Assembly (NCBI GenBank): GCA_029891345.1
Contig: CM057009.1
Coordinates: 306,653,166 to 306,717,165 of the forward strand
Direction: 5' to 3'
Length of the DNA stretch: 64,000 nucleotides
Source of the DNA: Dryococelus australis
Lineage: Eukaryota; Arthropoda; Insecta; Phasmatodea; Phasmatidae
The notes under the pieces were generated by a model, which made no database searches, was not told the origin of the DNA, and saw only the letters and a list, made by a program, of their open reading frames with translations. This document shows positions 21,496 to 43,927 of this stretch, piece by piece (position 1 is the first letter of the stretch; the number at the start of each line of letters is the position of its first letter). Both the position numbers and the translations under genes were made by a program.

Positions 21496-22428
21496 AGTAG
21501 AGTACGCATGCCACTTCTAGTTCAATTAAGGAGCGAGGTGTGGATGGAGCGGCTAATTTGCATATAGTTAATTTACATATGCCTAATTTGCCTATTGATA
21601 TGCAAATTAGATTTATGAAATGTTTGATTAATTAACATATTGATCAATCAATTATTTTATTTTATTAATCGATTCATTAAAGAATTGTTTGATCAAAATT
21701 CTTTATTGTTTGATATAAATTTTTTATATTTTTTAATGGTATGCAAAGCGTTAAGTGTCATAAGGGTGATATTGGCGGAGCACCATCAATGTCCCCTCTG
21801 TGACGTCCTGGAGCCGACTGAACAGAGGGTGGGTTGTAATTGCCTATATAGGATGTTTTTGTAAGAGTGGTATAAGGAACATTTTTTTCGTTTGTGACTA
21901 ATGGGAGCCGGGGCTATACGTCCGTCTAGGCCGCTCTCTGGATGCATACTGAGGGTTTAACTAATTTACATATGGGACAAATGTTTTATTTTCGGCAAAG
22001 CAAATATTTTTTTTTAACAAAAAGAGTCGATTTATGTTCAAATACCCAACTGAAATAAGTACGAATCATTAATAAGTTCCTTTAATCACTAATCCGATTG
22101 ACCAAAAGACTTTAATCATGCGATGACCGAATGAAAGTATTTCCCTAGCAAAGTAACTGAACCCCACTTTAATCACGCGTTTACTACACGTAACATTTAA
22201 CCGAAAGAACCAAACACATATTCATACGATTAAGGAATTTATATTAATATAGTATCCACAAAACGAAACAAAATGCAAACTAACTGGTCATTAAACAAAG
22301 CTAATTAATTAATCACATACGAAGCAAGCTAACATAAAAACACACGAATTACAACTTACCAGGTGTCATAATTCCCCTCCCCATAATTTTATCCCCTCCC
22401 AACAAAATTACACATACACGAAGTGACA
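21496..22428 (+). repeat. Left terminal inverted repeat of the giant element
   Basis: 933 bp, inverted-complementary to the two-part right TIR. Landmarks shared with the right TIR are GGTGTGGATGGAGC (about 21536-21550), repeated ATATGCAAATTAG-type motifs (21555-21610), TCAAACAAT/ATCGATTAAT-type AT blocks (21625-21700), AAGTGTCATA (about 21753), GTGACTAATGGGAGC (21894-21908), GACGGACGTATAG-type (about 21919-21933), ACTGGTCATTAAACAAAG (about 22283-22300) and CGAAGTGAC (22419-22427). It contains a P-element-end-like segment at 21750-21835. Confidence 0.85.
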
Positions 22429-24002
22429 CTGAAACACGAATATAAATACGTACTTTACTCCGTCCCTCATCGGCTCTCAAAACCAATATTCTAAACGCAC
22501 AAACACACATCGAAATGCAGGTTAAACCATCTTCCACAAACTGATTGATTACACTAAGATACTAAATGTAACACCAATTCGCAAACCCAGCGTATTCTAT
22601 TAAAACTCACTATATAATTAAACCCCACACATGCAAATTACCTTTAAACCCAACTCAAATATCCAAGAAAATCGCTTCACTTTCAACACACATTAAAAAC
22701 GCACTACCGCGATCGTGCTCTTACAAAACGTTTTCCGTCGTACGCCGACTTCTTTATCGCTCCAACTCGCCTAATGCGAAAGCCCGTCGCACGTGGATTA
22801 TTGCATTAAAAAAAATCTATTAATTAAACCTAATAGCTATCCGAACATGCGAGAGAAAAAAATGTAGTATTTTGTATAAGAGTCGGTGTCACTTTTCCAA
22901 GCCTTGTAGCCAGCTCGACTGCTCGGGTAGAACTGAAAGCTCCTGCAACCATACATTTTTGTCGGTTCACCCCCACTCTCCATCATGCTCCAGGCAGGGA
23001 CAAAGAAGCCACCCCAAATTCCCGCGCCTCAAGACAGGTGTGGCGCCGCTTTGTAGCCACCGCACTGCTGTCTGTGAAGGCTGGCTCTCCGAGGAAGTTT
23101 CAGATACTAGTAACTGAATTTAAAAAAATATATTCCCATCGCGTCTACAGCAAACTATGTTTATTGCATTACAAAAAAATCTCTAAGTCCAGGAAATTCT
23201 AAAACTCTTACCCAAATTTCAAAGCGATATCCCGCAAACAAACAGATTTAAGATATTTCCAAGTAGCGCGTTTATTAAAAACATGACGTTCCATGATCAC
23301 ACTCAAGACTCAAAACTAAATATCTGGAAATCCGTTTTCTGTTACCAACAAGTTGCTATCCAAACCTTTTGCTATCAAACATTTTTGAGGCCTGCCACTA
23401 TTCGGTAAGCATTTTAAACGTACGTAGGCCTATGTATATTTTCTAAAATATGTTTTTGCGTGTAGAATTCTATACAAAATTATAAGTTTTAAACAAATAT
23501 TCGTATACACGAAAATTAAGTATTATTTTACAAATGCTCCAATATTAGCAGATGTATATTTTGGACAAATATACGTAAAGATCATGTTTCCATTAAAATT
23601 AAAACAATTGGAATTCATATCGGAGTTTTAAATTCAAATATTTCAACAAAAACCATATTTTAAACATTTCGACCCCGATAGGATTTTTGGAGCTATGGTA
23701 AACTAACATATATTTTTTTCTAAAATACGTTTCCAAGCCTACAAAACACAAATTCTATATCTAATACGTTTATTTTACAAGCGCTGCCACCCAAGTATAT
23801 CAGAAAGGTGTATACTTAAACAAATGTGTGTATATTTTGATTTAAAAACGGATTTCCCTAGAAAAAAGTTTCGACGTATACCATGTATCCAGCCTGGAAT
23901 GAGTTGTAAAATACCAAAATCAATGTTATTTTAATAAATTTCTAAAATACTCTATTTGAAGCAAAATTCAATTAAAATGGTGGCCATTTAGAATATGTAT
24001 AC
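22429..24002. other. Giant element interior, no gene recognised
   Basis: Starts inside the left TIR boundary. 22872-23117 holds an 81-residue ORF with no recognised motif. The rest is AT-rich. None of the ATPase, integrase or protease genes expected of a Polinton is visible. Confidence 0.45.
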
Positions 24003-24037
24003 TATATAAGAAGGAATAAATTAATTTTTCTCTCAGT
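24003..24037 (+). promoter_or_regulatory. Core promoter 1: TATATAAG + TCAGT
   Basis: TATATAAG at 24003-24010 and the arthropod initiator TCAGT at 24033-24037 are spaced so that the Inr A lies 30-32 bp after the TATA box. The same arrangement recurs at 24660 and 25160. Confidence 0.65.
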
Positions 24038-24066
24038 ATTGAGCCAGCAGTTATTAAAGTCAGATC

Positions 24067-24520
24067 ATGTCGGGAAAACATCACTGGGAGGGTTACATCA
24101 ATCAACATATTTCACAGTGATGTACTACAGCCATCTCTGAGAAGTTTACATCAATCAATACACTTCTCCGAGGCATATTACAACCATCTCCGAGAGGTTT
24201 ACATCAATCAACACGTTTAGTATATTCAACACCTGTTGAATACACTAAATTTTGCAGAACACGAAATTCAACACGTGTATCCATTCCTCTCAGAGGATTT
24301 AAGAGGCGATGAGGACATAGTCCCATATTTACCTTGTGACGAAGATTGCCCGTATGGTACACCAGCTTTTTTCAATCAACCAAATGCAATCCATCTGAGA
24401 AGAGATTGTGTAATGCGAAGGTGGCAAAACGTAATTGAACTTGTTAATAACCCCGAATTACCAAGAGACGATTCCAGGATTGATGAAGTTGATTCGGAAG
24501 CCACAACTGAACTTATGTAA
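24067..24520 (+). pseudogene. Unknown ORF pair, unit 1 of the TATA-TCAGT array
   Basis: An ATG at 24067, preceded by TCAGATC (compare TCAGTC before units 2 and 3), opens an 18-codon ORF (MSGKHHWEGYINQHISQ). After the 53-bp repeats comes a 94-codon ORF (24236-24520), acidic and cysteine-containing: CDEDCPYGTPAFF near the middle, LRRDCVMRRWQNVIELV towards the end, and an acidic C-terminus. The second ORF starts with TTG in its longest form and may be a continuation after frame damage. I do not recognise the family. Its LRRDCVM...NVIELV segment is loosely like LCRDSML... of unit 2. Confidence 0.4.
24093..24251 (+). repeat. 53-bp imperfect direct repeat, three units
   Basis: TTACATCAATCAA occurs at 24093, 24146 and 24199, exactly 53 bp apart each time. 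CCATCTC(C/T)GAGA precedes the second and third. It lies in the transcribed part of unit 1, between its short ORF and the 94-codon ORF. Confidence 0.85.
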
Positions 24521-42897: not shown

Positions 42898-43537
42898 GCT
42901 GCGGAAAAAAATCGCGTGTGGTTAGCGTCTTGCTCAGTAAAACAGTAATACAACAGTCAGTTCTAAGCATACTGCTTTTGTAGTCCTTTTGCCTTTTGCA
43001 CAGAGTATGGAAAATTAGTATTCGCCACTACATTTCTTATTGCATAAACATGTTAATATTAGTAATCAATCATGTAAGAACCATGCTCGTTGTAAGTAGA
43101 TATAATACGTTTATTTGAACCAGCAAGTGACATGTGCCCGAACTTAAACTAGATATACAAACAATAAATTATTTTAATTGTTTGTAATAACAGATGTAAC
43201 TTAATTTCGTAATCTCTGTTAGGTTTTTAAAGAAGATACACCTACGCTACATGTGCAGAAAAAAACAAAGGAAAATCAAATCAAATGGATGTTTTCAAAG
43301 TGGACTGAAACTTTTCAAAAGGCGACTCAAGTAATCTGCTCCGAGTACATTTATATTAAAAACAAGTGTGCTAAAAGGTTGTGTTGCGGATGACAATATA
43401 ATTGAATGTTGTTAGTAGCCTATTCGATTGTGCATATGCGTTCATTGTGTAGGCATAGTTTAGAACATTCGTTTAGTTGAGTCGCGCACGACACAGCGTT
43501 TGCGGCTACCGCGCCCCTCCTGCTTCGTCCGCCTCGC

Positions 43538-43558
43538 CTGTCCTCCCGGTGACGTCAC
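43538..43558 (-). repeat. Subterminal inverted repeat with GTGACGTCAC, right copy
   Basis: In reverse complement GTGACGTCACCGGGAGGACA, partner of 37753-37773 with one mismatch. An adjacent GCTCGCGCG-type stretch (43574-43597) matches 37708-37732 in inverse orientation. Confidence 0.75.
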
Positions 43559-43613
43559 GAAGTACCAGCCAATGGCGCGCGAGCAGCCGGAACGGATCCC
43601 CCCCCCCCCCATG

Positions 43614-43927
43614 CCTGGACGTCACAGAAAACACATCGGTGCTGCTACTCCAATATCACCCATATGACACTTAACCATTTCAACACCAATAAAAAAAAAT
43701 TGATATCAAACAATAAAGAAATGTGATCAAACAATTATTTTATTAATCGATTAATCAAATCAATCAATTGTTTAATTCATATGCTAGTTAATCAAACATC
43801 TCTTAAATCTAATTTGCATATCAATATGCAAATTAGCTATATGCAAATTAGCATTATATGCAAATTAGTTGCTCCATCCACACCTCACTCGCTAAATGAA
43901 TTAGAAGTGACAAATGCTTGCTCTACT
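43614..43927 (-). repeat. Right TIR of the giant element, outer part
   Basis: Inverted-complementary to 21496-21822: GGACGTCACAG, CAATATCACCC, ATGACACTTAAC, TCAAACAATAAAGAA, ATCGATTAAT, TAATTTGCATATCAAT, repeated ATATGCAAATTAG, GCTCCATCCACACCTC, TTAGAAGTG and the terminal CTCTACT. The three ATATGCAAATTAG copies (43829-43869) are likely binding sites for a terminal protein or transposition protein. Confidence 0.85.

What the first reader, a model, noticed from the sequence alone, without database searches (positions are those of the whole stretch)
21496..43927. A 22.4-kb Maverick/Polinton-like giant transposon, intact ends, hidden behind later insertions
Seen: AGTAGAG...CTCTACT termini, inverted repeats of about 930 bp (21496-22428 against 43927-43614 plus 37676-37058), and a perfect 6-bp duplication GGCTGT at 21490-21495 and 43928-43933. 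Known: 6-bp duplication, long TIRs and a 5'-AG start are diagnostic for Maverick/Polinton elements, which descend from virus-like elements. Inferred: once the nested P-like element is removed the length is about 16.5 kb. The recognised Polinton core genes are almost absent and unknown genes fill the space, so this may be a non-autonomous giant carrying novel cargo.
Basis: partly seen in the sequence, partly recalled or inferred. Interest (0 to 1): 0.93.

Follow-up and report, generated by a model that had tools for sequence, protein, structure and literature searches.

The report
Satellite-like Polinton carrying a broken polymerase
This stretch is a decayed copy of a giant virus-like jumping gene (a Polinton) in which no capsid or integrase gene and no polymerase core was found; a polymerase fragment broken at the same point sits at dozens of other places in the genome, so such copies were likely multiplied by enzymes borrowed from other elements.

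Summary
In detail: AGTAGAG...CTCTACT ends, ~935-bp inverted repeats (TIRs), a perfect 6-bp duplication, and a P-like transposon splitting the right repeat; net length ~16.5 kb. The host genome (3.4 Gb, unnamed) holds a large family with these ends. Five of five copies with both ends readable, window included, show a 6-bp duplication (one 6/6, four 5/6; control 0.6%). Three relatives with the same ends encode a Polinton capsid and likely protease, ATPase and integrase, so the affiliation rests on homology. The window copy shows none of these; its polymerase keeps N- and C-terminal remnants around a dispersed-repeat fragment, without the core. In 40 of 40 scored genomic matches the N-terminus runs into that same fragment, and 8 of 40 share the full junction, so the broken gene was probably inherited through many insertions. 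The 'novel cargo' is a ~5-kb, mostly non-coding module found at 40 scored places. Bolder reading, not excluded: capsid/integrase elements without polymerase core and polymerase/module elements without capsid form a two-part system. Only seven relatives were inspected closely, two of them incomplete, and the query for the 40 contained the break.

The parts
21490..21495 (.). left copy of the 6-bp target duplication, GGCTGT
21496..22433 (+). left terminal inverted repeat, starts AGTAGAG
   Evidence: 67 matching stretches in the genome
22434..23833 (+). left subterminal arm shared, in part, with gene-bearing and gene-poor copies
24241..29175 (+). ~5-kb module shared with C1, C11, C17:288 and partly C17:79; mostly non-coding; 24240-25652 may be a gene remnant
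29663..31790 (.). repeat-rich region with 265-bp tandem unit (30061-30876)
32877..33182 (+). C2H2 zinc-finger-like ORF before the polymerase N-terminus (PF00096 E 0.005, under the cut-off)
   Evidence: counterparts in C8, C2, C17:79
33227..33760 (+). remnant of the N-terminal part of a Polinton-type DNA polymerase B
   Evidence: ORF 33491-33760 is 56% identical to the piece upstream of a DNA_pol_B_2 frame in L048
33793..33881 (.). fragment resembling a dispersed repeat, at the polymerase breakpoint; at the same site in C8, C13, C2 and C17:79
34005..34408 (+). remnant of the polymerase C-terminal end; about 2.5 kb of core present in C11 is missing before it
34505..35474 (+). right subterminal arm shared with C1, C11, C17:79
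36286..37051 (+). segment found inverted near the left TIR of C8 and C13
37054..37671 (-). inner piece of the right terminal inverted repeat
37706..43595 (+). nested P-like DNA transposon (THAP and RNase H-like transposase domains)
43614..43927 (-). outer piece of the right terminal inverted repeat, ends CTCTACT
43928..43933 (.). right copy of the 6-bp target duplication, GGCTGT

Best explanation
It is a non-autonomous Polinton: it shares its ends and 6-bp target duplication with relatives that encode a Polinton-type capsid and likely protease, ATPase and integrase genes, none of these was found in it, and its polymerase gene is interrupted and lacks the catalytic core, so it was likely copied and inserted by proteins supplied by other Polintons. 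Shown: ends, duplication, shared family, gene absence at the sensitivity used, and a polymerase break shared with other loci. Inferred: a partner's polymerase copied the element, a partner's integrase recognised the AGTAGAG ends and made the 6-bp staggered insertion, and this happened repeatedly after the polymerase was broken. After insertion the copy decayed; a P-like transposon landed in its right repeat.
For: Ends and 6-bp duplication in window, C8, C11, C13, C2 (6/6, then 5/6 four times; 5 of 5 copies with both ends readable; control at least 5/6 in 87 of 14575 offset pairs). A tree of 20 TIR sequences pairs the two TIRs of C8, C13, C2, C11 and C1 (support 0.957-1.000) and groups the three window pieces (0.856). 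C8, C13 and C2 carry a DJR capsid (PF21738 E 6e-44 in C8, 1.5e-10 in C13), a PLA2-like protein (PF08398 E 1.7e-5 in C13) and pieces read as ATPase, protease and integrase. Of 85 capsid-, ATPase- or integrase-region pieces, none matches the window element, C11, C17:79 or the searched part of C17:288 at E 0.01, and one matches C1 at E 0.009; the same set matches C8, C13 and C2, many being cut from those copies. Break: in 40 of 40 scored matches the N-terminus runs into the repeat fragment, 8 with the full window junction; C8, C13, C2, each with its own duplication, have it; these N-termini form one side of a branch with support 1.0.
Against: One search used the broken junction as query and scored 40 of 3977 candidates, so it cannot tell what share of the family is broken, and what lies beyond the break was examined in few of the 32 shorter matches (C13, C2). 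Among copies with the full window junction, a target duplication was checked in the window alone; C17:79 has one readable end. The right ends of C13 and C2 carry one changed base in the terminal motif and were placed by eye and motif. Gene conversion between copies could spread the break without transposition. Integrase (best PDB matches, 8 of 8 integrases, E 0.099-0.49; no Pfam hit), ATPase and protease (PF00770 E 0.0023 in relative L038, under the cut-off) are named mainly from motifs read by eye. A very diverged gene could escape.
Confidence: 0.82

Rival explanations
1. Two-part Polinton: one element type carries capsid, protease, ATPase and integrase but no polymerase core, another carries polymerase and the module but no capsid or integrase; both share ends and complement each other. 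The window copy is then a polymerase-dead derivative of the second type (this extends, rather than excludes, the best explanation).
For: Capsid-set pieces in 3 of 7 fetched relatives (C8, C13, C2), polymerase core in 2 of 7 (C1, C11), never both in one. In C2 and C8 only about 2 kb lies between polymerase N-terminus and repeat region, less than the ~2.5-kb core. TIRs of the types interleave in the tree: window with C11, C1 with C8, C13 and C2.
Against: Seven old, decayed copies chosen by TIR likeness to the window; C17:79 and C17:288 are incomplete; in C13 the gap is 3.2 kb, so room is not lacking there. Complete Polintons with other ends may exist: the genome scored 126 capsid and 54 polymerase stretches. 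The fetched loci around them hold only ~1.5 kb on each side, so the absence of co-occurrence in them says little; 9.9 kb at one other capsid locus (L054) gave a capsid match and no polymerase match.
Confidence: 0.2
2. An ordinary complete Polinton that lost its genes after inserting here.
For: Old insertion (TIR divergence 0.15-0.19) and overall decay.
Against: The same junction is shared by 7 other loci over 1.1 kb; C1 and C11 also lack the capsid set and carry the same module. Independent loss in place would give different breaks.
Confidence: 0.08
3. Copies multiplied by host segmental duplication, not transposition.
For: Full-junction copies are 75-78% identical and several share a chromosome.
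Against: Five copies have 6-bp duplications of five different sequences next to the ends. Flanks were not aligned systematically.
Confidence: 0.03
4. Another DNA transposon superfamily with 6-bp targets, such as Ginger2.
For: Ginger2 also prefers 6-bp targets (PMC2836005, passages).
Against: Ginger2 ends follow TGTNR and targets are RTATAY; here ends are AGTAGAG and targets differ; relatives with these ends encode a DJR capsid or a polymerase related to DNA_pol_B_2.
Confidence: 0.02

Closest known systems
Polinton/Maverick (Polintoviruses), vertebrate Mavericks of PMC8097293
   Same: 6-bp duplication; TIRs within the published 46-1447 bp range; length near the published mean of 16.9 kb; terminal motif begins AGTAG, near the published (AGT)2; most published copies are degraded too (passages and section 7)
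   Different: no capsid, protease, ATPase or integrase gene and no polymerase core found in this copy; carries a ~5-kb module instead
Capsid-less Polintons noted in PMC4028283
   Same: nine elements of a 72-Polinton set lacked MCP, PRO and ATPase together (section 4)
   Different: here integrase and polymerase core were not found either, the polymerase break is shared with other loci, and capsid-bearing relatives with the same ends lie in the same genome
P element
   Same: the nested 5.9-kb insert has THAP and P-type transposase domains
   Different: a later insertion, not part of the Polinton; no target duplication found

Membership tests
Non-autonomous member of a Polinton end-family | 6-bp target duplication directly outside the ends | tested here: met
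   6/6 here; 5/6 in four relatives, at length 6 only
Non-autonomous member of a Polinton end-family | long TIRs starting 5'-AG, homologous to TIRs of gene-bearing Polintons | tested here: met
   ~935-bp TIRs; 70-75% identity to TIRs of C8, C13, C2, which carry Polinton-type genes
Non-autonomous member of a Polinton end-family | a defect inherited through several insertions | tested here: met
   N-terminus runs into the same repeat fragment in 40 of 40 scored matches, full junction in 8; of the copies with the fragment, own duplications confirmed for window, C8, C13, C2; gene conversion not excluded
Polinton/Maverick, autonomous | protein-primed B-family DNA polymerase | tested here: not met
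   N- and C-terminal remnants only; core pieces from C1 and C11 do not match
Polinton/Maverick, autonomous | retroviral-type integrase | tested here: not met
   no match in the element at E 0.01; integrase-like pieces in C8, C13, C2
Polinton/Maverick, autonomous | DJR capsid, protease, packaging ATPase | tested here: not met
   no match in the element; present in C8, C13, C2
Ginger2 | TGTNR ends and RTATAY target | tested here: not met
   ends AGTAGAG; left duplications GGCTGT, CTCTAC, TGTGTG, CCCGCA, ACCATA (definition from passages)
P element (nested insert) | THAP plus P-type transposase domains, terminal and subterminal inverted repeats | tested here: met
   (the C-terminal P domain under its cut-off)
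P element (nested insert) | 8-bp target duplication (recalled) | tested here: not met
   no pair of at least 7/8 near the edges; hence called P-like only

The most novel reading that the evidence does not exclude
A segmented Polinton: in this genome one Polinton population divided its genes between two kinds of element with interchangeable ends, a capsid-and-integrase element without a polymerase and a polymerase-and-module element without capsid or integrase, and spawned satellites such as the window copy that have neither. This would be a multipartite, virus-like system living inside chromosomes.
Probability: 0.2. Interest if true: 0.8.

Novelty: new variant of a known kind. Interest (0 to 1): 0.45.

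Why it matters
Polintons are usually described as self-replicating elements (PMC6431247, passages). Copies that carry the same broken polymerase under shared ends suggest that such elements can be parasitised by their own defective kin, and one genome with many copies lets one test whether polymerase, integrase and capsid functions are shared in trans.

Tried and rejected
Whole-frame Pfam scans were not accepted, so chosen ORFs were scanned singly (window; relatives); not every short ORF of the element was scanned. Searches with the 33491-33760 ORF found nothing in phages, PDB, viral contigs or the protein collection. Codon-phase analysis of 22.4-37 kb showed no consistent three-base periodicity, though single windows deviate (lowest p 2.5e-5 at 28251). 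The module's ORFs in the window and three relatives have no Pfam match over a cut-off. A resemblance of repeated module peptides to a known insect domain came to mind and was not tested further. Misassembly was judged unlikely from copies elsewhere and the TIR tree. Paper searches: Maverick/Polinton ends (33 papers, 20 listed), Polinton with Periplaneta americana (0), non-autonomous/internal deletion (51, 20 listed), cockroach (3, listing), nonautonomous/capsid/satellite (0), defective/in trans (54, 10 listed), lacking integrase (0). The listings showed no title or abstract start on a split Polinton; I opened passages or sections of four papers (PMC8097293, PMC2836005, PMC4028283, PMC6431247), and the library lacks most subscription papers.
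Full report
Observation. Identity between the repeats is 81.6% (outer part) and 84.9% (inner part). The 5942 bases that separate the two pieces of the right repeat hold a P-like transposon with THAP and RNase H-like transposase domains and its own terminal and subterminal inverted repeats; no target duplication of it was found. Without it the element is about 16.5 kb.

Family. The left TIR finds 67 stretches in the 3.4-Gb host genome, 40 of 2498 candidates having been scored. 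I fetched seven relatives: C8, C13, C2, C1 and C11 with TIR matches on both sides, and C17:79 and C17:288 with one side. Five copies, the window included, have both termini readable. All five show a 6-bp duplication: window 6/6, C8 CTCTAC/ATCTAC, C11 TGTGTG/TGCGTG, C13 CCCGCA/CCCGTA, C2 ACCATA/ATCATA, each 5/6; at lengths 4, 5, 7 and 8 no copy does better than 3/4 (C11). Offset control: 87 of 14575 at 5/6 or better. The right ends of C13 and C2 have one changed base in the terminal motif and were placed by eye and motif. C1 has no readable left end. In a tree of 20 TIR sequences the two TIRs of C8, C13, C2, C11 and C1 are sisters (support 0.957-1.000) and the three window pieces group together (0.856); left-right divergence is K2P 0.146-0.212, so these are old insertions of similar depth. 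No clock was calibrated.

Gene-bearing relatives. C8, C13 and C2 carry, in matching order, a double-jelly-roll capsid (PF21738, E 6.1e-44 in C8; 1.5e-10 in C13; C2 by tblastn), an adjacent capsid-side protein, a protease-like protein, a phospholipase A2-like protein (PF08398, E 1.7e-5 in C13), an ATPase-like piece, a coiled protein and an integrase-like protein next to the TIR. ATPase, protease and integrase were named from motifs read by eye; database support is weak: Peptidase_C5 E 0.0023 in a related locus, under the cut-off; eight of eight PDB matches of the integrase piece are integrases at E 0.099-0.49; Pfam gave no integrase hit. The genome scored 126 DJR stretches (of 18148 candidates) and 54 DNA_pol_B_2 stretches (91 scored of 6290), so Polinton-type genes are abundant there.

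What the window copy holds. Of 85 pieces from capsid, ATPase and integrase regions, protease included, none matches it at E 0.01; the one hit outside the gene-bearing copies lies in C1 at E 0.009. It keeps a zinc-finger-like ORF (32877-33182), the N-terminal part of a polymerase (33227-33760) and a C-terminal remnant (34005-34408). The polymerase identity rests on a chain: locus L048 holds a DNA_pol_B_2 frame (E 7.8e-17); a piece upstream of it is 56% identical to the window's ORF 33491-33760, and a piece downstream matches ORF 34139-34408 at 62%. About 2.5 kb present in C11 between those ends is absent.

The break. Between the two remnants lies a fragment (33793-33881) that is 75-78% identical to sequences at 51993-52051 and 53835-53918 in the window and similar to places in L020, L031 and L054, so it looks like a dispersed repeat. 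C8, C13, C2 and C17:79 have it at the same site. With 33400-34508 as query, 40 of 3977 genomic candidates were scored. All 40 run from the N-terminus into the repeat fragment; 8 (window included) continue across the whole junction, and 32 stop at query position 482-505, at the fragment's end or within 23 bases past it. The query contains the break, so these numbers do not give the share of broken copies. N-termini of the broken type and of core-bearing loci (C11, L048, L049) fall on two sides of a branch with support 1.0. A break shared by many loci, several with their own target duplications, was most simply inherited through later transpositions.

The module. 24241-29175 is shared with C1, C11 and C17:288 and in part with C17:79; C13 and C2 keep a ~0.75-kb piece of it, C8 none. 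As DNA (24547-28306) it was scored at 40 places of 3855 candidates. Two of these lie 3.8-4.6 kb from a full-junction match (C1:126.77 Mb, C2:310.99 Mb) and one about 7 kb from a polymerase match (C3:302.3 Mb), besides the window itself, 4 of 40; all three lists are truncated, so this is a lower bound and does not show that the module is confined to Polintons. Stops shared by two or more copies number 79-114 in each of the six frames; the longest stretches without one lie in 24571-25147 (576 bases) and 25184-25652 (468), a possible gene remnant. No Pfam relative over a cut-off.

Types. Among the seven relatives plus the window: capsid set without polymerase core in C8, C13, C2; polymerase core with module and without capsid set in C1, C11; module with broken polymerase and without capsid set in window and C17:79 (the latter incomplete on one side); C17:288 shows the module and is cut short on the right. 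No inspected copy has both sets. This fits trans-mobilised defective copies and also a two-part system. I favour the first because it needs only shared ends and because trans-mobilised non-autonomous elements are known in general (PMC6431247, passages); the second needs a larger census.

Mechanism. Likely: a partner's polymerase copies the linear element, a partner's integrase joins the ends to a 6-bp staggered cut. Both steps are inferred from the known Polinton gene set (PMC4028283, passages and section 4; PMC6431247, passages). Known precedent: nine elements of a 72-Polinton set lack MCP, PRO and ATPase together. A copy in which integrase and polymerase core are also not found, with the break itself shared by many loci, goes beyond what I saw described.

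Verdict. A confirmed, old, non-autonomous Polinton; a new variant of a known kind. Moderately interesting as it stands, more so if the split of gene sets holds genome-wide. On re-check the odds of the two-part reading as a rival were set equal to those of the novel case (0.2); others are unchanged.

Noticed in passing
window 1768-4474: Integrase core (rve E 6.5e-12, Integrase_p58_C 3e-5) followed by weak Baculo_F-like pieces (E 0.005-0.009, under the cut-off): looks like an LTR element with an envelope-like gene.
   Followed up: partly
window 58141-59651: Zinc knuckle/aspartyl-protease piece (weak) and reverse transcriptase (RVT_1 E 1.4e-17): a second retroelement.
   Followed up: no
window 51988-53931: About 1.9-kb unit with imperfect inverted ends; its ends resemble the repeat fragment that breaks the polymerase gene.
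   Followed up: partly
window 61777-61982: Five perfect tandem copies of a 41-bp unit.
   Followed up: no
genome G000: 126 double-jelly-roll capsid stretches scored of 18148 candidates, eleven of them (my count) with no stop inside: such genes are abundant and some may be young.
   Followed up: partly
window 36286-37051: Segment next to the right TIR lies inverted near the left TIR in C8 and C13, which suggests rearrangement between arms.
   Followed up: no
L017 2775-3430: A tandem array of about 106-bp steps in C11 corresponds to window 24079-24214, which holds a 53-bp-spaced repeat.
   Followed up: no
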